Below, one piece after another: positions 4,381 through 31,592 of a DNA stretch of 64,000 nt. The stretch spans positions 1 through 64,000 of IMG/VR virus record IMGVR_UViG_3300017963_000254. One strand, written 5' to 3'. The first letter of the stretch is position 1. Each line of letters begins with the position of its first letter. The translations under genes and the position numbers were made by a program. The notes under the pieces were generated by a model that had not been told where the DNA came from, did no database searches, and was given only the letters and a program-made list of their open reading frames with translations. The stretch is from a virus.

Positions 4381-4499
4381 CGACTCGATCGTCTTCACGG
4401 CTCCTCGTATCGGCCCGATGAGTATTCGAGGCGACAGAGACCCGGAAACGAGGGGCTTACTTCAGCGTGGTGTGCCGGGCCGCCACTGAGAGAGTTCTC

Positions 4500-7400
4500 A
4501 TGCCACAGCTCATCAAAGACATCGACACCGGCGACGTAGAGCCGGTTCGCCTCATAGACACCGCGCGTTCGCGCGGTGCTTTCGTATTCGATCTCGAGAC
4601 TACAGGTCTCGTGCCCAGGCGTGACCGTATCGAGGGCATCGCCTTCTACGTTCCGCCTGACGAGCCGACGCAGACACCCGAGCTGCGGGCCTGGTACCCG
4701 TTCATCCCCGACTCGTATCGCACGTGGGTTCAGCCTGACGATGGCGGCAAGCCGATCGTCAAGAACCTCCGGGCGGCGATGCCCCAGGCCGAGACGATGG
4801 CAGCGCTCCGGCCGCTGTTCGAGGAGAGCCCGGGAACGATCGCGGTCGCCCACAACTGCCTTCAATACAACACGCGCGTTTTGCTTGCTGATGGCTCAAC
4901 CGAGCTTATCGGGAAGATCGTCAACCAGCGGTTGCCTGTATCTGTCATGTCGTGGGATGGCGAGCGGTTTGTCGCAAAGCGGGTAACGAACTGGTGGCGG
5001 AACGGCCGGAGAGACGACTGGTACAAGCTGACCCTGTCTCACAAACCCGTGGGCGCGTGCCTGTACGTTACCGGCGACCACGAGGTCTACTTGTCGAATG
5101 AGGAGAAGAGGCGAGTAGCAGACCTTCGGCCCGGCGATGTGCTGCTGCGGTCAGAACCGCTTCTCTCTCCAGCGCAGAAGCAAGTGGTGCTCGGGACCGC
5201 GCTCGGAGACGGGAGTTTCACTAGAACATCGGCGAGCGTGAGTCACTTCCTGTCTGTGGGACATGCGCCGTCTCAGGAGGAGTATCTCGACTGGAAGGTC
5301 AGGATGCTCGGGCGCATGGTCAGTTCTCGATGGGAGGAGGCCAACAATCGCGGTTTTAGCGCCGCCGATGGTCGGATCATCAAGCTGCGGACAATCAACA
5401 GTGAGCAGTTCAGTCGTGCTGCCGAGACCGTTGTGGTGAACGGCCGGCGGCGGATTTCAGAAGAGGTGCTGGAAAACCTCGACGCTCGTGGGCTCGCCGT
5501 CTGGTACATGGATGACGGCAGCGTATGCGTCCGTAGAGGCGCGCTCTCCGCTGTTCGTCTACATGTCTACGCCTACCCGATTGACGACGTCGAACGTCTC
5601 TGCCACTGGCTCGCCGAGCGGTGGAGCATCATCGCCAAGAAGAGAAAGAAGACCGATCGCGGCGAATTCAAGGGCTACTACATCGAGATGACTGGAGAGA
5701 ACGCGCTCGCATTCTCCAAACTCGTTGCGCCGTTCGTGGTCCCGTCGATGTCGTACAAGCTGGCGCCCGGCGACCGGGGCGCGTTCGTCGATTGGACCGA
5801 GCGATTCGAGCATCCATCGCCGGCGACAGTGGTCAGCGTGGGTCGTTGTGGTATGCCGTCGAGCTACAGTCGAGTAGGTTTCGATCTGGAAGTGGAGGAC
5901 ACGCACCGATACTTCGCCAGCGGGATTCTCGTCTCGAATTGCAAGTTCGATGTCGCGTTCCTCAAGTACGCGAGCGGCTGCGCTCGCGGCTACTGGATGG
6001 AGCGTTCGGCCGTCGATCAGCTGGGCAACCTGGTCCGAGACGACGCCAACGAAGACCCGGCCCAGTGGTGGTGCAACGGCCTGCTCCTCGCCGACTCGAT
6101 GCTGGCCGACTTCCTCTGCGACGAGAACCTCTACCAGTACGGCCTGAAGCACCGGGTGAAGGACGTGCTCGGCCACGAGATGACGACCTACGTGGACGTG
6201 GCCCGTACCCGCAAGCAGGGCGTGCTGTCGTTCATGGCCGACGACGTCCAGACGCTCGGTTACTACGCGATGGAGGACTGCTACTGGACCTGGCGCCTCT
6301 TCGAGGACCGGATGCGGGAGCTGGACAGTCAGACGCCCGGCAAGCCGATTCCAGAGGAGGCGGTCGACGCGCTCGCCTGGCTCTACGAGGAGGGGCTCAA
6401 GCTCAGCCCGTTCGACAAGACTCGGGCGATGGGCAACCTCGAGCGGCTCTTCTGGGGGATCGACATGAGGATCTGCCAGATTCTCGAAGAGATGGAGAGC
6501 ACTGGCATCCTCATCGACTGGAAGTGGCTCCGGCAGGTCACCAAGGATCTCGAGGAGAAGAAGGAGAAGATCATCCGGCGGATCGAGGAGCGCATCGGCT
6601 GGACGCTGAACCCGAACAGCCAGCCGCAGGTCAGCGCGCTCCTCTTCAGCGCGAAGGAACACGGCGGCCTGGGGCTCAACTCCAAGGGGATCAAGCGCGG
6701 CAAGAGCGGCGGGATCTCGACCGGGTCGAAGGAGATCGGCCACCTACGCCGGGCCGATCCGATCGTGGCCGACATCCTCGACTGGCGATCAGCTGATACC
6801 GTGCGGGCGAACTTCTCCGAGAAGCTCGCTCGGATCGCTCAGGAGGAGCCCGACTGCCGGGTCTACTCTCACTTCAACCAGACCGGGACCGTGATCCATC
6901 GTTTGTCGTGCATCGCCGGATCGTCAAAGCTCGCCGTTCGCGTAGGAAACGACGAATACAAGCGTTCAACCAGAATCTCAGAGCTGTTGCGGTTTAGCGG
7001 CCAGACCGTTACCATCGAGACGCACAAGGGGCGGGAGCGCCGGATTACGCACCTGGTCAACAAGGGTCCGGGCTTCATGTTCGACGTGGAGACCGACGAT
7101 GGCTGCAAGATCCGCTGCACGGCCGACCACCGCTTCCTCACCGAGCGTGGGTGGCGTGCTCTCAAGGACATCCGTGTCGGGGACCGGCTTGTTCGAGCCG
7201 AGTTACGTGCGGCTCCTGCGGCCGGTGGACGGACGACGCTGGGTTCTGGATCGGCCGTCGTTCCTGCGGATCTTCGTGAAGGACACGCGGGCGGTGCGCT
7301 GGAAGATCCCGGACTACGGGCTGTCGAACGGGATCGCGCTGGTCTGCAAGGCGATCTACGGCTGGGAGTTCCCGCACCTGTTTCGGGGAACGCCGACGAA

Positions 7401-9425
7401 GCTGCCGGACCTGGCGGAGATCCTGCCGGAGTTCCCGACGTACGTGAGGCGGGCGCGCTCCAAGGGGTTCGTGCTCTCGCGGGAGTCGTTCCAGGCCGCG
7501 TTCGTGGACAGCGATCTGACGCAGGAGGAGGCGAAGGAGCGGTTCGGCATCGCGCACCAGTCGATGATTCGAGCCGTGAAGCTCTACCGCGAGTTCTCGG
7601 GCCAGCTCAAGGCCAAGCAGGCGCGGCTCATCAGCGCCCGCAAGCTGTCGGCGGAGCCGTTCTTCCCGCAGGAGGAGCTGGAGCGTCGGCTGTCGGCTGG
7701 GATGAGCGTGGAGGAGGTCGCAGCCGATTTGGGAGTCGGGTCATCGCTGGTCCTGATGGATCTGCGGCATCACGGGATCGCGCAGTCGAGCGGGAACGCT
7801 TCGCACTGGCTGGACAGCTTGTCGCAGCCGGAGCTGGATGCGCTGTCGCTGGTGAACCCGGCGATGGGAGCGCTGATCGGGGACGCGGCTACGGACTTTC
7901 CGGCGATGGTCGAGACGTACCAGCGGCTCGCGGAGCTTGCCGCGCTGCTCAAGGCGAGCTGGTCAACGCTCAAGGCGTTGCAGGTGCGCGGCGAGCTGCC
8001 GAAGGCCGCGCTGACCTTTGCCGCGAACGCGCAGGAGATGCGCCTGTCGCGCGCGCTGACGGCGGCCGGGATTCCGCACACACGACTGCTCTGCTTCCAC
8101 AAAAACTGGCAAGCGGACTTCGCGTGGCCGGAGAAGAAGCTGATGGTCGAGGTCGATGGCGAGTTTCACCGGAAGTGCGGGACGACCAAGAAGCGGGACG
8201 CCAGGAAGGCGCGCAAGGCGAAGCAGCTCGGCTACCGAGTCCTGCGCTTCACGACCGAGCAGGTGGACCGGGAGCTGCCGACCGTGGTGCGGCGGATCGC
8301 GGGCGCGCTTGGATGCGCGTTGCCGCGATCACTCCGGTTGGGGTAGAGACCGTCTGGGACATCACGGTCGAGGACGACGAAAGCTACGTCGCGCACGGGT
8401 TCCTGAACCACAACAGCAGCGATCCGGTCAATCTCCAGAACCAGCCGCGCGACCGCAACCTGATCCGCAAGGCGTTCTGCGCCTACTTCGAGGATGAGCT
8501 GGAGCCGGACATGCTCCTGTTCGGTGCCGACTACGGCCAGGTCGAGCTTCGCGTGGCCGCGCACCTGAGCGGCGACGAGGGCATGACCGAGGTCTACCAG
8601 ACCGGCAAGCCGTGCACGCGCGGCCCCGGCGGCGGCGCCTGCGAGCGCTACAAGTGGTGGGAGTGCGAGAACAAGGACGACGACGGGAACTACTGCGGGT
8701 ACACGTGGGTCCCGGAGCAGTGGGATCCGAAGAAGCCCGGCGCCCCTCTCACGTGCCCCAAGTGCGGCGGGCCGGAGATCGGTCATCAGAAGCGGTGCCG
8801 GCACGTCGACCTGCACCAGCGCACGGCCGAGGATGTCGGAGTTCCGAGAAACCCGCTCGCGAAGAACGCGAACTTCGGCTTGCTCTACCGGATGGCCGCT
8901 CCTCGGTTCTGCCAGTACGCTGATCTCTACGACGATCGCGGCGAGCCGATGATCGACTACGCGCAGTCGTTGATCGACGGATGGTTCGCGGCCTACCCGG
9001 CGATCCAGCCGTTCCACGACCGCACCGAGCGCTGGCTGCGCCAGAACGGCTGGTACGCCTGCACACTGACCGGCCGGCGTCGCCGGCTCGACCGGGAGCG
9101 ATGGAAGAACGAGTACCGTGCGGTCACGCAGGGCATCCAGTTTCGCGTCAGCGGTTCGGCACAGGACATTCTCAAGCGTGCCATGGTGGACATCGCCCAG
9201 GAGCGTGAGCGGAGGATCTTCTGGTCGCGGCCAGCTGAGAGCAAGCTCTGGCGAAGGCTCCGCTACATCATCCAGGTGCACGACGAGGTCATGCTCCAGG
9301 GGCCGGCGGTGCTCAAGGACGAGACGATCGATCTGATCAACACGAAGATGTGCGGCGCGGCCACGTTGAGCGTGCCTCTGACGGCGGACTGCAAAAGCGG
9401 GCGCACTTGGGATGACATTCACTGA
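4500..9425 (+). CDS. polA: family A DNA polymerase with two inteins
   Basis: One open frame of 1641 codons from ATG 4500 (an upstream GTG at 4467 is in frame but lacks conserved residues). Removing the two inteins leaves 778 residues. The 3'-5' exonuclease is present: DLETTGL (Exo I), HN-CKFD (Exo II, split by intein 1) and YYAMEDCYW (Exo III). Polymerase motifs are RLS-SSDP..NLQ (split by intein 2), DYGQVELR (motif A), KNANFGLLYR (motif B) and VHDEV (motif C). There is no 5'-3' exonuclease domain, as in replicative phage polymerases of the T7 sort. Between motifs A and B, about 8609-8805, is a Cys-rich insertion with CPKC and several other Cys and His residues, probably a zinc site, which is unusual for this family. 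It should be the replicative polymerase. Activity requires both inteins to splice. Confidence 0.9.
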   Translation: MPQLIKDIDTGDVEPVRLIDTARSRGAFVFDLETTGLVPRRDRIEGIAFYVPPDEPTQTPELRAWYPFIPDSYRTWVQPDDGGKPIVKNLRAAMPQAETMAALRPLFEESPGTIAVAHNCLQYNTRVLLADGSTELIGKIVNQRLPVSVMSWDGERFVAKRVTNWWRNGRRDDWYKLTLSHKPVGACLYVTGDHEVYLSNEEKRRVADLRPGDVLLRSEPLLSPAQKQVVLGTALGDGSFTRTSASVSHFLSVGHAPSQEEYLDWKVRMLGRMVSSRWEEANNRGFSAADGRIIKLRTINSEQFSRAAETVVVNGRRRISEEVLENLDARGLAVWYMDDGSVCVRRGALSAVRLHVYAYPIDDVERLCHWLAERWSIIAKKRKKTDRGEFKGYYIEMTGENALAFSKLVAPFVVPSMSYKLAPGDRGAFVDWTERFEHPSPATVVSVGRCGMPSSYSRVGFDLEVEDTHRYFASGILVSNCKFDVAFLKYASGCARGYWMERSAVDQLGNLVRDDANEDPAQWWCNGLLLADSMLADFLCDENLYQYGLKHRVKDVLGHEMTTYVDVARTRKQGVLSFMADDVQTLGYYAMEDCYWTWRLFEDRMRELDSQTPGKPIPEEAVDALAWLYEEGLKLSPFDKTRAMGNLERLFWGIDMRICQILEEMESTGILIDWKWLRQVTKDLEEKKEKIIRRIEERIGWTLNPNSQPQVSALLFSAKEHGGLGLNSKGIKRGKSGGISTGSKEIGHLRRADPIVADILDWRSADTVRANFSEKLARIAQEEPDCRVYSHFNQTGTVIHRLSCIAGSSKLAVRVGNDEYKRSTRISELLRFSGQTVTIETHKGRERRITHLVNKGPGFMFDVETDDGCKIRCTADHRFLTERGWRALKDIRVGDRLVRAELRAAPAAGGRTTLGSGSAVVPADLREGHAGGALEDPGLRAVERDRAGLQGDLRLGVPAPVSGNADEAAGPGGDPAGVPDVREAGALQGVRALAGVVPGRVRGQRSDAGGGEGAVRHRAPVDDSSREALPRVLGPAQGQAGAAHQRPQAVGGAVLPAGGAGASAVGWDERGGGRSRFGSRVIAGPDGSAASRDRAVERERFALAGQLVAAGAGCAVAGEPGDGSADRGRGYGLSGDGRDVPAARGACRAAQGELVNAQGVAGARRAAEGRADLCRERAGDAPVARADGGRDSAHTTALLPQKLASGLRVAGEEADGRGRWRVSPEVRDDQEAGRQEGAQGEAARLPSPALHDRAGGPGAADRGAADRGRAWMRVAAITPVGVETVWDITVEDDESYVAHGFLNHNSSDPVNLQNQPRDRNLIRKAFCAYFEDELEPDMLLFGADYGQVELRVAAHLSGDEGMTEVYQTGKPCTRGPGGGACERYKWWECENKDDDGNYCGYTWVPEQWDPKKPGAPLTCPKCGGPEIGHQKRCRHVDLHQRTAEDVGVPRNPLAKNANFGLLYRMAAPRFCQYADLYDDRGEPMIDYAQSLIDGWFAAYPAIQPFHDRTERWLRQNGWYACTLTGRRRRLDRERWKNEYRAVTQGIQFRVSGSAQDILKRAMVDIAQERERRIFWSRPAESKLWRRLRYIIQVHDEVMLQGPAVLKDETIDLINTKMCGAATLSVPLTADCKSGRTWDDIH
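4857..5939 (+). mobile_element. intein 1 of the DNA polymerase (LAGLIDADG, Exo II site)
   Basis: The insert has 361 residues, from Cys (TGC 4857) to Asn (AAT 5937-5939). It begins CLQYNTRVLLADG (block A) and has VTGDHEVYL (block B), two LAGLIDADG-type motifs (LGTALGDGS and VWYMDDGSV) and a C-terminal end YFASGILVSN followed by extein Cys. The exteins rejoin as AHN-CKFD, an intact Exo II motif. The penultimate residue is Ser, not the usual His; functional inteins without this His are known. The endonuclease motifs keep their acidic residues, so it may still be able to home. Confidence 0.92.
6909..8414 (+). mobile_element. intein 2 of the DNA polymerase, interrupted by an endonuclease gene in another frame
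   Basis: The intein starts at Cys (TGC 6909) with CIAGSSKLAVRV, has block B (CTADHRFLTERGWRAL), and its N-terminal part ends near 7200. The C-terminal part begins around ATG 8313 (MRVAAITPVGVETVWDI) and ends GFLNHN at 8412-8414, followed by extein Ser. The rejoined extein is RLS-SSDPVNLQNQ, the polymerase motif near motif A. Between the two parts, about 7205-8312, the polymerase frame stays open but encodes Gly/Ala/Arg-rich sequence without recognisable domains, while the +1 frame encodes a nuclease. The C-part looks like a typical split-intein C fragment with its own Met. Confidence 0.85.
7189..8346 (+). CDS. Vsr/DUF559-like homing endonuclease nested in the polymerase intein, +1 frame
   Basis: This frame, shifted +1 from the polymerase, encodes about 385 residues. 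A TTG at 7189 with GGGGA upstream (7179-7183) or a GTG at 7207 are candidate starts. Two helix-turn-helix-like segments (around DLTQEEAKERFGIAHQS and MSVEEVAADLGVG) precede a C-terminal nuclease fold with AGIPHTR, DFAWPEKKLMVEVDGEFH and GYRVLRFT, which matches the Vsr-like homing endonucleases described beside split inteins in so-called fractured genes. It ends at TAG 8344-8346, overlapping the Met-started C-part of the intein by 34 nt. It probably supplies the homing activity that intein 2 lacks in its own frame. How it is translated is unknown. Confidence 0.8.
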   Translation: MFEPSYVRLLRPVDGRRWVLDRPSFLRIFVKDTRAVRWKIPDYGLSNGIALVCKAIYGWEFPHLFRGTPTKLPDLAEILPEFPTYVRRARSKGFVLSRESFQAAFVDSDLTQEEAKERFGIAHQSMIRAVKLYREFSGQLKAKQARLISARKLSAEPFFPQEELERRLSAGMSVEEVAADLGVGSSLVLMDLRHHGIAQSSGNASHWLDSLSQPELDALSLVNPAMGALIGDAATDFPAMVETYQRLAELAALLKASWSTLKALQVRGELPKAALTFAANAQEMRLSRALTAAGIPHTRLLCFHKNWQADFAWPEKKLMVEVDGEFHRKCGTTKKRDARKARKAKQLGYRVLRFTTEQVDRELPTVVRRIAGALGCALPRSLRLG

Positions 9426-27720: not shown

Positions 27721-28385
27721 GCAACGGGACCGGCAACAACCCGAAGCGCTCTCTGGTGACACCGACGCAGGCGGCTGCGATCGGCCGGAACAAGCGTCGC
27801 TACCGGTCGCTGATCGATAAGAGGCGGCTCGCCGTATGGGAGGCTCGTCTCGCCGGCGTGCCGGTCTATCAGCTGGCCAAGGACCACGGCGTCTCCACGA
27901 AGACGATCGAGCGGGACATCAGGTGGTGGGAGGATCGGCTCGGCTACCGAGCTGACGAGCTGAAGGATCCGAAGAACGCCGCGATCGATGTCGGCATGAC
28001 GATGGCCAAGCTCCAGAAGGTGGCCGAGGATGCCTACGTCGAGTTCCTGGGGGCCGACAACGGTCACCTCAAGGCCAAGTTCCTGATGGTGATGAACAAC
28101 GCGCTCGTCAACAGGCACAAGATCGGCGCCGACGCCGGGTTCTTGCCGAAGGTCGGTCAGGACCACGAGTGGCGAGAAGAGGTCAAGGTCACCTTCACTC
28201 AGCGGTTCGGCAAGGAGTCCCCGCAGGCCGTGTTCGATGACGACAAGAGCCGGCGCCGTGTTCTCGAGGCGACCGAGGCGATTCTCAAGGAGAGCGCCAG
28301 GTCGGGTGTTCCAGTCAAGGCCCTTCTCGAGCAGGCGTCGGCCAAGCCGGTGGAAGGCCAAGTTGTCGACACTGACGATGTGTAA
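27717..28385 (+). CDS. terminase small subunit-like protein
   Basis: The ATG overlaps the previous stop; the product has 222 residues and is followed immediately by the terminase large subunit (stop and start share one base). The N-terminal part has an HTH (VYQLAKDHGVSTKTIERDIR), as small terminase subunits use to bind DNA, and the middle is helical (FLMVMNNALVNRHKIGADAG). The call depends on position and HTH together. Confidence 0.6.
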   Translation: MSNGTGNNPKRSLVTPTQAAAIGRNKRRYRSLIDKRRLAVWEARLAGVPVYQLAKDHGVSTKTIERDIRWWEDRLGYRADELKDPKNAAIDVGMTMAKLQKVAEDAYVEFLGADNGHLKAKFLMVMNNALVNRHKIGADAGFLPKVGQDHEWREEVKVTFTQRFGKESPQAVFDDDKSRRRVLEATEAILKESARSGVPVKALLEQASAKPVEGQVVDTDDV

Positions 28386-29908
28386 TGATCAGCTACGAGC
28401 ACGGGCGTTGGCGGTCGGTTCGGACTAATACCGAGAAGCTGAACGCCGCGCTTGAAGCCGTGCGTCAGCTGACGGTCGATGAGAGGGCCGCGTTAGGGAT
28501 CGTCCTCGGCGAGTTCGAGGACACCGGCACCAGCCAGACAGCCGACGAAGCGGCCGAGTTCGAGTGGGAGGAGACGCCTCTCCCGATCGAGGAGTGGATC
28601 CTGTCTGAGTACCACGTCGGCGAGACCGGTAAGGATCTCTACCCGATCCTACGCAAGGACATCTGCGAGCTGTTCCACGCGGGCGCACTCAAGAAGGGTG
28701 GCTACGCGGAGGCCGTGCTCTGCTTGCACCCAGACACGCGGGTGCCTCTTCTCGATGGGACTGCTCCTACGATCGCCGAGCTGGCAGAGCGCTGGCAGCG
28801 TGACTCGGTGCCGTTCTGGGTCTACTCCTACGTCAACGGAGAGCTGGGGCGGGCGCAGGCGGTCCAGCCCCGGCAGACCGGCGTGGACGACTACTACCAG
28901 GTAACCCTGGACGACGGTTCGACGTTCATCGGGAACTCCAGACACCAGATGCTCCGGCGCACTGGCGAGAAGGTGATGATCCGGGACATGCGGCCCGGCG
29001 ATTCGCTGATGCCATTCGAGGTGAAGTTCTCATCGACGAGCGCCGGCGACGATTTGGACGGCTACGAGAAAACTCAGCTTCTGTCAGGAGAGTGGGCTTA
29101 CACGCACCGACTCGTTGCCAAGGCATTGTGCGAGCAGGAAAGCGAGCGGCACAGTGTCGTTCACCATGAGGATCTGGACAAGCGCAACAACACACCAGAG
29201 AACCTCACGTGGATGAAGTGGCTCGATCACTTCAGGTTGCACCACCAGGAGCGGCGAGTAGACATCACGATTGATGCGATTCGCGCTACTGGTGCCGCGA
29301 GTCTACAGGAGGCGGCGGAGGCGCTTGAGTGTAGTTACTCACGCATTCGTTACGTGCTCCAGAAGAACGGCTACACGCAGACCGAGTTCTTCGGCAACCG
29401 GCGCGGCAGACGGCGCGGTAAAGACGACCTGACGATGGCTGCCGTGCGATTGGTGATCGAGGGTGGGGCGAGGACAGCCCGCGAAGCGGCCAAGCATCTT
29501 GATCGGGACCGCTCGACGCTTCATCGGTTCCTGCGGGCACGCGGTACCACTTGGACGAAGCTGCTGCGCGGGCACGACAAGAAGCTCACGGTGGAGCGCG
29601 TGGTTGCTGCGATCCAGTCTGGTGCCGCCACTGTTACAGCGGCGGCGCACTCACTTGGTTGTTACAAGAGCACGATCTACAAGCTGCTCAACCGCGAGGG
29701 GCTTGAGTGGGCCGAACTAGGCGGAGTGGTCGGCAATCACTTCGTCGTGAGTGTCGAGAAGATAGGAAGAGGTCCGGTCTACTGCTTGTCTGTTCCCGGC
29801 GCGGGGAACTTCGCCATCAGCACTCAACACAGCGAGGAGGAAGAGGTCAGTCCCATCCATCGCTCTGGTGTTTTTTCGTCGAACACCGGAGCCATCGGAT
29901 GGGGCTGA
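28385..29908 (+). CDS. terL: terminase large subunit, N-terminal part with intein
   Basis: This frame gives 112 residues of extein ending AEAVL, then an intein, then TGAIGWG directly followed by TGA 29906-29908. EAVL-TGAIGWG is the start of the terminase ATPase Walker A. The remainder of the protein continues in another frame from AAG 29922 (KDYFATFATMRVLYELLCL). If the 16 nt at 29906-29921 are skipped, the joined sequence reads GAIGWG-KDYFATF with normal terminase spacing, giving a 675-residue protein after splicing. As written, the gene is broken at its ATPase motif. Confidence 0.8.
   Translation: MISYEHGRWRSVRTNTEKLNAALEAVRQLTVDERAALGIVLGEFEDTGTSQTADEAAEFEWEETPLPIEEWILSEYHVGETGKDLYPILRKDICELFHAGALKKGGYAEAVLCLHPDTRVPLLDGTAPTIAELAERWQRDSVPFWVYSYVNGELGRAQAVQPRQTGVDDYYQVTLDDGSTFIGNSRHQMLRRTGEKVMIRDMRPGDSLMPFEVKFSSTSAGDDLDGYEKTQLLSGEWAYTHRLVAKALCEQESERHSVVHHEDLDKRNNTPENLTWMKWLDHFRLHHQERRVDITIDAIRATGAASLQEAAEALECSYSRIRYVLQKNGYTQTEFFGNRRGRRRGKDDLTMAAVRLVIEGGARTAREAAKHLDRDRSTLHRFLRARGTTWTKLLRGHDKKLTVERVVAAIQSGAATVTAAAHSLGCYKSTIYKLLNREGLEWAELGGVVGNHFVVSVEKIGRGPVYCLSVPGAGNFAISTQHSEEEEVSPIHRSGVFSSNTGAIGWG
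28721..29884 (+). mobile_element. intein in the terminase large subunit (HNH plus HTH repeats)
   Basis: The intein has 388 residues, from Cys (TGC 28721) to Asn (AAC 29882-29884), followed by extein Thr. Block A is CLHPDTRVPLLDG, block B is FIGNSRHQML and block F is VYCLSVPGAGNFAIS, with an end VFSSN. The endonuclease is HNH type (VVHHEDLDKRNNTPENLTW, then LDHFRLHH), followed by three HTH repeats of the NUMOD type. This class differs from the LAGLIDADG inteins elsewhere in the window. The insertion point is just before the Walker A glycine. Confidence 0.88.
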
Positions 29909-31592
29909 CCTCGAAATTCTCAAGGACTACTTCGCCACCTTCGCGACGATGCGTGTGCTCTACGAGCTGCTCTGTCTGAAGAACCCTCAGCACACGTTAG
30001 GGCTGGGCGCCGGCGAGCCCATTCACGTCGTCCCCATCTCTCGCACGGTCGCTCAGGCGAAGCGCGTCGTCTTCGGCGGCCTCTGCAAGAAGCTCAACCT
30101 CGCCGACTGGTTCCGTGGCAAGTTCGTCGAGACGATGGAGGAGGTCCGCTTCAAGGAGAAGGGCGTCTACATCGTCGGCGGCGCGTCACAGGATGCAAGC
30201 GCACTCGGGTTGAACGTAATTTGTGCATTGGTTGATGAATCGAATTTCATGGGAGAAGGCAAAGTCGCTACAGGAAGCGCCAGCGGTGAGGCGTATGATA
30301 AAGCAACAATGATCTACAACGCGCTCGCCCGGCGCGTGAAATCGCGCTACGAGCGACACGGAGTCTCCGGCCTGGTGTTCCTCATCTCGTCGAAGCGCTC
30401 GACGGAGGACTTCACCGAGCGCCATCTGAAGCAGGCGATGAAGGACGACGACCCGACCGTCTTCGCCCGCGACTATGCGACATGGCACGTGCACCCCGAG
30501 CCGTTCGCGGACCAGAAGTGGCACAAGGTGATGGTGTCTCCGAAGAGCGGCAAGAGCAGGCTGCTCGAGGATGGCGAGGAAGTCGAGGAAGACGAGAACA
30601 CGATCGTCTTCGAGTATCCCGATGACTATCACGAGGAGTTCATCAACGACACGGACGGCGCGGTCCGCGACTTCGGTGGCATCGCGACCGACTTCGCCGG
30701 CAAGCTGTGGATCACCAGGCGGCAGGCGATCGACGAGATGTTCGATCACGCCAGGCCGCAGTGGTTCGGTACCTCCGAGTGGAGGACCGACAGGATGCTG
30801 CGGTTCAACTGGAAGATGTGCATGGGGGAGAACGTCGACAAGGAGCCGGTGCCGGCCTGTTGTCCTGGCTCGGTCCGCCACGTCCACATCGATCTCTCCA
30901 CGAGCCAGTGCGCGACCGGGTTCTGCATGGGGCATGTGGCCGGCTCGGTTCCGGTGACCCGGCGCGACCCGGAGACGGGCGAGCAGCGCCGCGAGGATGC
31001 GGTGGTGGTCCACATCGACTGCATCCTGCGGATCGTGGCGCCAGACGGCGGCGATGTCGATCACGGCGAGGTGCGCAGCCTGGTCTACAAGCTGATGAAG
31101 GGCGGGGTCCCGATCCGGTCGGTCTCGATGGACCAGTACCTCGCCCCGTCCAACCTCCAGATGTTCAAACGCAAGGGGTTGCGCACCGAGGAGATCGGTG
31201 AGCGGCGCTTCAAGCTCAAGCCCTACATCGCGACCCGGCAGGCGCTCTACGAGGGCCGGGTGGTGGCTCCGGTCTCCGAGAACCTGGCGTCCGAGCTGAA
31301 GGTGCTCGAGCTGCACCCGTCCGGCAAGAAGGTCATCGTCCCCGCGAAGCAGTCGAAGGATCTGGCGGACGCGCTGTGCGGCGTGGTCTACTACATCTCG
31401 GAGCACATGAGGGCCGGCGTCGTCCTCGCGCCGACTCTGGGAACGTCCGGGAGCGCACGGCCGGTCGGTCCTCAATGGAGTTCCGGCGGCCATGTCGACT
31501 GGGGCGACGATGACGATTACGGTTACGATCCTCCGCTCACGTCCGATGGCTCTGGTGATGGGGGGTTCTCGTCGTGGATCATCCTCGGCTGA
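29868..31592 (+). CDS. terL: terminase large subunit, C-terminal part (out of frame with the N-part)
   Basis: The frame opens at GTG 29868, but terminase sequence proper begins at AAG 29922 (KDYFATFATMRV). It includes VVFGGL, a Walker B-like NVICALVDES, LISSKRST (coupling motif) and the nuclease part with HVHIDLS (first Asp), IDCILRI and DALCGVVYYI. This matches phage TerL proteins that translocate and cut DNA at the portal. A start near 29868 would not give an intact ATPase, so function requires the frame break at 29906-29921 to be bypassed, or the break is a mutation or sequence error. Confidence 0.78.
   Translation: MFFRRTPEPSDGADLEILKDYFATFATMRVLYELLCLKNPQHTLGLGAGEPIHVVPISRTVAQAKRVVFGGLCKKLNLADWFRGKFVETMEEVRFKEKGVYIVGGASQDASALGLNVICALVDESNFMGEGKVATGSASGEAYDKATMIYNALARRVKSRYERHGVSGLVFLISSKRSTEDFTERHLKQAMKDDDPTVFARDYATWHVHPEPFADQKWHKVMVSPKSGKSRLLEDGEEVEEDENTIVFEYPDDYHEEFINDTDGAVRDFGGIATDFAGKLWITRRQAIDEMFDHARPQWFGTSEWRTDRMLRFNWKMCMGENVDKEPVPACCPGSVRHVHIDLSTSQCATGFCMGHVAGSVPVTRRDPETGEQRREDAVVVHIDCILRIVAPDGGDVDHGEVRSLVYKLMKGGVPIRSVSMDQYLAPSNLQMFKRKGLRTEEIGERRFKLKPYIATRQALYEGRVVAPVSENLASELKVLELHPSGKKVIVPAKQSKDLADALCGVVYYISEHMRAGVVLAPTLGTSGSARPVGPQWSSGGHVDWGDDDDYGYDPPLTSDGSGDGGFSSWIILG

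What the first reader, a model, noticed from the sequence alone, without database searches (positions are those of the whole stretch)
28721..31592. Terminase reading frame broken by 16 nt directly after the Walker A start
The frame with the intein ends ..TGAIGWG followed by TGA. The rest of the terminase starts in another frame with KDYFATF. Removing exactly 29906-29921 (tgacctcgaaattctc) restores GAIGWG-KDYFATFATMRV, with normal helix spacing to LYELLCL. The options are a sequencing or assembly error, a damaging insertion (perhaps left by intein homing, as it lies 21 nt from the intein end), or translational bypassing. The stop directly after a glycine codon recalls the take-off site in T4 gene 60, but no matching landing codon is visible. 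A simple +1 shift at GGC-TGA-C would insert DLEIL and spoil the P-loop.
Basis: partly seen in the sequence, partly recalled or inferred. Interest (0 to 1): 0.72.

Follow-up and report, generated by a model that had tools for sequence, protein, structure and literature searches.

The report
Hairpin-templated break in phage terminase gene
In this virus of bacteria, the gene for the DNA-packaging motor is broken by 16 extra letters inside its ATP-binding loop, next to a protein-splicing element; the letters look partly copied from a nearby hairpin, so this is probably a mutation or assembly variant, yet Streptomyces phages carry a gap at the same codon boundary that their ribosomes are thought to skip.

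Summary
The intein (28721-29884) and its host codons TGAIGWG are followed by TGA at 29906. TerL resumes in the +1 frame with KDYF, and 29906-29921 are exactly the extra bases. Intein-free relatives and about a dozen same-site intein relatives, all intact in frame, have nothing between GxG and K.

Its first 7 nt are the reverse complement of intein DNA 29843-29849 (chance about 2e-4). Its last 6 nt plus AAGGA match terS (weak evidence). This is the signature of a quasi-palindrome template-switch insertion. I favour a frame-breaking mutation in the phage, or less likely an amplification or assembly error, that leaves this record's only terL untranslatable as one chain.

Programmed bypassing is not excluded. 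Streptomyces phages phiHau3, GreenWeasel and BroPlease carry a 10-nt gap at the same Walker-A boundary (GGC | AAG GAC), also 1 mod 3; in phiHau3 bypassing has been proposed. They have a Gly landing codon; the window has none (CTC), which argues against a gene-60-type hop.

Single +1 frameshifting would put DLEIL into the P-loop. Raw reads decide between variant and artefact; a reporter assay decides on bypassing.

The parts
28385..28720 (+). N-extein: first 112 codons of the large terminase subunit (TerL)
   Evidence: 88% identical to L002/L005 TerL residues 1-112; TerL profile match 28388-28723
28721..29884 (+). intein, 388 aa, with HNH endonuclease domain; C1, block-B His and terminal Asn present, +1 residue Thr
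   Evidence: Pfam Intein_splicing and HNH_3 (sub-threshold); PHROG HNH endonuclease; NCBIfam intein_Nterm (sub-threshold); 33-43% identical to same-site inteins L022, L070, L071, L072
29843..29912 (+). 30-bp imperfect hairpin (7-nt loop) that spans the intein C-terminal junction, the Walker-A codons GAIGWG, the TGA and the first 7 nt of the insert
29885..29905 (+). C-extein codons TGAIGWG, first part of Walker A
   Evidence: identical peptide in L001-L004
29906..29921 (+). 16-nt insert tgacctcgaaattctc, starting with in-frame TGA; the frame changes by +1 across it
   Evidence: absent from all relatives
29906..29912 (+). TGACCTC, reverse complement of GAGGTCA at 29843-29849 (8 bp if the preceding C is counted)
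   Evidence: frequency of this 7-mer in the window 25/127,986
29916..29921 (+). ATTCTC; with the following AAGGA an 11-nt match to terS 28281-28291 (possible second template, weak)
29922..31592 (+). remainder of TerL from the Walker-A lysine (KDYFATF...), intact open frame
   Evidence: TerL profile match 29919-31583; 92% identical to L002, 73% L003, 67% L004

Best explanation
The 16 nt are a templated insertion mutation at a quasi-palindrome. Codons for SGV (intein end) and N|TG (junction) are reverse complements, so the intein/extein junction can form a short hairpin. In this genome the intein loop before it also pairs with the Walker-A codons, extending the hairpin. A polymerase that stalled there switched template, copied TGACCTC from the 5' arm, added a few more bases (possibly from terS), and rejoined at AAGGA. 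The result is a TGA in place of the Walker-A lysine codon and a +1 shift, so this copy of terL cannot be read conventionally into one ATPase. Shown: the insert, its absence in relatives, the hairpin, the copied 7-mer. Inferred: the event, and that the allele is non-functional.
For: The insert is absent from 6 intein-free TerL loci and about a dozen same-site intein relatives. The hairpin 29843-29912 is the most stable in the window, z = -7.1. The 7-mer next to the old arm end is its exact reverse complement, p about 2e-4; none of 5000 random local 16-mers makes as stable a hairpin. Without the insert the hairpin is already strong (-35.4 kcal/mol, z = -4.6), so a quasi-palindrome existed to seed the event. 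The inner SGV/NTG stem also occurs in L068. None of 12 relatives has the outer stem, so a conserved functional RNA is not indicated. Quasi-palindrome mutations in E. coli and T4 make imperfect inverted repeats more perfect (PMC7202029; PMC8794818). The exact ATTCTCAAGGA match in terS fits a second template, weakly.
Against: Only 7 of 16 nt are convincingly templated. The older 5' arm differs from an exact inverted copy at about 4 positions, so at least two events are needed. A lethal terL allele should not dominate a phage population, unless it is helped in trans, rare, or an artefact. The same codon boundary is interrupted in phiHau3 and two relatives, which are isolated phages; chance does not explain that well.
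Confidence: 0.48

Rival explanations
1. Amplification, library or assembly artefact: the hairpin stalls polymerase or lowers coverage, and the contig records a rare or in-vitro template-switch product; the real phage has an intact terL.
For: The same phage in another sample (G001, one mismatch with the window over 23.3 kb, 30159-53504) has a contig that turns into L002-type sequence and ends just upstream of the intein site, so assembly is troubled exactly here. No second terL in the 74.5-kb record. A lethal allele should not be the consensus.
Against: Complementarity is imperfect (2 G.U pairs, one mismatch, one bulge), unlike a fresh snap-back artefact; the insert does not continue as the copy of the bases before 29843; long genes elsewhere in the window are intact and no other clear mid-gene break of a core gene was found against G002.
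Confidence: 0.22
2. Programmed translational bypassing: the ribosome stops at GGC with TGA in the A site, slides 16 nt, helped by the 5' hairpin refolding behind it, and resumes at AAG to give an intact Walker A.
For: phiHau3, GreenWeasel and BroPlease have a 10-nt gap at the same boundary GGC|AAG GAC, also 1 mod 3; for phiHau3 bypassing is called likely in PMC5009743. A stop after the P-site Gly codon and a 5' stem-loop that zips behind the ribosome are features of T4 gene 60 (PMC11194080; PMC5009743). The two TerL families show no overall sequence similarity, so the shared position looks independent.
Against: No Gly codon precedes AAG (CTC); no matched take-off and landing pair gives an intact P-loop. 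The hairpin is not conserved. No homologue with this insert.
Confidence: 0.15
3. Homing scar or shield: an intein endonuclease cut the P-loop, and error-prone repair left the insert, which now protects the site.
For: TerL P-loops are favoured intein sites (PMC5050341). L048, L062 and L065 carry a second intein right after the Walker-A lysine, 3 nt downstream of the insert position. The gene-60 gap has been proposed to protect against cleavage by the nuclease that spreads the 5' homing endonuclease gene (PMC5009743).
Against: No cleavage site is known; the resident intein already splits its own target; GK|D cannot accept a standard intein (needs C, S or T at +1). Nothing in the sequence distinguishes this from replication slippage.
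Confidence: 0.1
4. Programmed +1 frameshift at GGC-TGA-C giving GWG-DLEIL-KDYF.
For: UGA-C in the A site is a poor stop context (general knowledge); the frame is correct.
Against: It would put five residues between the Gly and Lys of Walker A; tRNA-Gly on GGC does not re-pair well on GCU; no relative has such residues.
Confidence: 0.02

Closest known systems
phiHau3 / GreenWeasel / BroPlease TerL coding gap (Streptomyces phages, Hautrevirus)
   Same: short frame-breaking insert at the same Walker-A boundary GGC | AAG GAC (GWG|KD), length 1 mod 3, absent from close relatives
   Different: 10 nt not 16; contains TTA rather than a TGA right after GGC; has landing codon GGT before AAG; kept in three isolated phages; no intein at the site; no 30-bp hairpin
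T4 gene 60 translational bypass
   Same: stop codon directly after the P-site Gly codon; 5' stem-loop at the take-off region
   Different: 50-nt gap with matched GGA take-off and landing, take-off loop, nascent-peptide signal; none of the landing features is here
Quasi-palindrome-associated template-switch mutation
   Same: the insert makes an imperfect inverted repeat longer and more perfect; breaks the frame
   Different: only 7 (8) of 16 nt are explained by the hairpin template; not observed as an event
Walker-A TerL inteins (mycobacteriophage TerL1-a/-b; IMG/VR L022, L041, L065 and others)
   Same: intein near the P-loop of TerL; those found here have the same insertion site, before TGAIG
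   Different: in all others found here the P-loop continues in frame after the intein

Membership tests
intein | N-terminal nucleophile (C/S), block-B His, C-terminal Asn and +1 C/S/T | tested here: met
   C1, H75, N388, +1 Thr in alignment A7; splicing itself not testable
intein | match to curated intein model above cut-off | tested here: inconclusive
   Pfam Intein_splicing 23.4 bits against cut-off 35.8; TIGR01445 21.4 against 24.5; the close homologue L065 also falls just short (24.2)
large terminase subunit (TerL) | homology to known TerL over ATPase and nuclease parts | tested here: met
   88% of the query covered in annotated phage terminases, E 2e-59
[quoted passage not shown]
   no matched or wobble pair gives an intact P-loop
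translational bypassing (gene 60 type) | stop or hungry codon in the A site after take-off | tested here: met
   GGC TGA
translational bypassing (gene 60 type) | product spanning the gap is made | not testable with these tools
   needs mass spectrometry or a reporter
phiHau3-type TerL gap | same position, frame change +1 | tested here: met
phiHau3-type TerL gap | TTA codon in the gap and a second Gly codon before AAG | tested here: not met
   window gap has TGA and CTC
quasi-palindrome template-switch mutation | new sequence is the reverse complement of the opposite arm, contiguous with a pre-existing imperfect repeat | tested here: met
   7 nt of 16
quasi-palindrome template-switch mutation | ancestor with the imperfect repeat and without the insert | tested here: inconclusive
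   no close intein-bearing relative found

The most novel reading that the evidence does not exclude
The insert is a second, independent case of a translated-over gap at the Walker-A GWG|K boundary of a phage terminase: the ribosome bypasses 16 nt with an unmatched landing codon, driven by a 30-bp hairpin that refolds behind it, in a gene that also needs protein splicing. P-loop gaps would then be a recurrent way to shield terminase from homing endonucleases.
Probability: 0.1. Interest if true: 0.88.

Novelty: new member of a known kind. Interest (0 to 1): 0.42.

Why it matters
If it is only a mutation, it shows that an intein junction can become a mutational hotspot, because codons of the splice motif and of the host P-loop are complementary. 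If the insert proves fixed and translated over, terminase P-loops would be a recurrent site of ribosome bypassing, and the phiHau3 proposal, named in PMC5009743 among the best candidates for a regulatory bypass, would gain an independent case that can be tested with one reporter.

Tried and rejected
Exact search of IMG/VR for the insert and for N|TGAIGWG: none besides the window. Intein protein search for near relatives: only 36-39% relatives. Genome contigs with the intein alignment: none. Genome contigs for GWG-gap-KD: 73 hits, by record title unrelated to Streptomyces and probably chance; not opened one by one. Rfam: only sub-threshold miRNA-like hits to the hairpin. The idea that the intein loop was a large insertion (from SP-15 alone) was dropped: against L065, L051 and L057 it is only 4 aa longer. 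A conserved hairpin in the intein family was tested and rejected. Bypass with other take-off codons was enumerated and rejected. A second terL in the record: none.

Full report
Observation. The window carries terL at 28385-31592 in two frames. The first frame encodes 112 residues of TerL, an intein of 388 aa (28721-29884) and the codons TGAIGWG, then TGA at 29906. The second frame, shifted +1, encodes the rest of TerL from the Walker-A lysine. The 16 bases 29906-29921 are extra: L001 (same phage downstream), L002/L005 (92%), L003 (73%), L004 (67%) and L018 (57%) read GAIGWGKD without a break and have no intein. A profile of these proteins finds only these two pieces of TerL in the 74.5-kb record.

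Is the insert a normal companion of the intein? No. Inteins at the same N|TG[AGS]IGxGK site were found in L022/L054, L041, L043, L046, L047/L056, L051/L072, L053, L057/L071, L060, L061, L062, L065/L070 and L068; in all of them the reading frame runs straight into GK. L022, L070, L071 and L072 are 33-43% identical to the window intein, which keeps C1, H75, N388 and an HNH motif. Bacillus phage SP-15 has a related intein two codons further upstream. L048, L062 and L065 carry a second intein right after the Walker-A lysine.

The hairpin. A repeat search showed that 29843-29858 in the intein and 29897-29912 across Walker A and the insert are complementary. Folding extends this to a 30-bp hairpin with a 7-nt loop, one C.C mismatch, one bulge and two G.U pairs: -53.5 kcal/mol, z = -7.1 against dinucleotide shuffles and against synonymous recodings; it is the most stable 80-nt stretch of the window. 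The inner stem follows from the protein motif: SGV and N|TG have complementary codons, and L068 shows the same inner stem. The outer stem is special to the window: none of 12 relatives reaches z below -2.7, while the window without the insert has z = -4.6 and with it -7.1.

Origin of the insert. Its first seven bases, TGACCTC, extend the 3' arm flush and are the exact reverse complement of 29843-29849; that 7-mer occurs with frequency 2e-4 in the window, and 0 of 5000 random local 16-mers gave an equally stable hairpin. The last six bases with the following AAGGA match terS at 28281-28291; by my estimate about 0.5 such 11-mer matches are expected in 64 kb and about 0.02 within 2 kb, so this is only suggestive. 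Insertions that lengthen an imperfect inverted repeat are what template switching at quasi-palindromes produces in E. coli and T4 (PMC7202029), and the same process can create hairpins (PMC8794818). I infer that mechanism; it was not observed.

Real or artefact? G001, from another sample, equals the window over 30159-53504 with one mismatch, but its last stretch towards the intein site is L002-type and the contig then ends. Either a recombinant lacking intein and insert exists, or the assembler joined two phages across a 68-nt identical tract. Both show that this spot is heterogeneous or hard to assemble. Other long genes of the window are intact, and comparison with G002 showed no other clear mid-gene break of a core gene; the candidates found lie at gene ends or in spurious antisense frames, as I read them. 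Reads are needed.

Bypassing. A review (PMC5009743) states that the terminase of Streptomyces phage phiHau3 is probably decoded by bypassing, after codons for KGWG. I read that gene: GGT TGG GGC | TTACTCCGGT | AAG GAC. GreenWeasel and BroPlease share the 10 nt (with one base change), and Yosif, Endor1 and Marav lack them. The window has GGA TGG GGC | 16 nt | AAG GAC. The two TerL families show no overall sequence similarity, so two apparently independent frame-breaking gaps, both 1 mod 3, sit at the same Walker-A boundary. That is unlikely by chance along a 2-kb gene and is the best argument for function, or for a shared hotspot such as endonuclease cleavage. Against it, phiHau3 has a Gly codon (GGT) in front of AAG and so could re-pair the same tRNA, whereas the window has CTC and no matched pair gives an intact P-loop. 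A 5' stem-loop that refolds behind the ribosome does help T4 gene 60 (PMC11194080), and the window hairpin is placed to do so, but it is not conserved. I give bypassing 0.15.

Verdict. A confirmed, unusual, frame-breaking insert, best explained as a hairpin-templated mutation (or less likely an artefact) in a phage terL that also carries an apparently intact intein. It matters mainly because the same codon boundary is interrupted in phages where the gene must work.

Noticed in passing
30159-30340: Patch of terL around Walker B (ALVDESNFMGEG), partly low in G+C for this gene, 93-100% identical to L002 in 60-nt bins while most of the gene is 72-92% identical; looks like a gene-conversion tract, perhaps from a past intein at the Walker-B site.
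   Followed up: partly
L001 1-384: Mosaic: identical to L002 up to about the 68-nt shared tract, then identical to the window; recombinant or assembly chimera.
   Followed up: partly
L002 4977-5025: The intein-free P-loop site of L002/L001 has many synonymous differences from the window (acgggagctattgggtggggtaaggat), possibly coconversion or escape from homing.
   Followed up: no
4467-9425: Single 1652-aa ORF with DNA polymerase matches at its C-terminal part and a LAGLIDADG homing-endonuclease match at residues 233-433: a polymerase gene with probably at least one intact intein.
   Followed up: no
29764-29774 and 29838-29848: 11-nt direct repeat AGGAAGAGGTC; the second copy falls where the window intein has 4 extra residues against its relatives, possibly another templated insertion.
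   Followed up: partly
L081 2890-2960 (phiHau3), L083 (GreenWeasel): Second 10-nt gap in terL, CGG[TCTTTAACGG]TCC, with repeated CGG and an upstream 10-bp hairpin whose 3' arm contains the first CGG; BroPlease has the hairpin but not the gap.
   Followed up: partly
L065, L062, L048: Two inteins in one P-loop: one before TGAIGxGK and one after the lysine, 24 nt apart in the coding sequence (in L048 only the second is visible).
   Followed up: partly
L008 1662-4380 (Bacillus phage SP-15): TerL with an intein next to Walker A ends about 50 codons later and a gene annotated as Holliday junction resolvase follows; the rest of terL matches about 3 kb downstream, so it seems interrupted more than once.
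   Followed up: no
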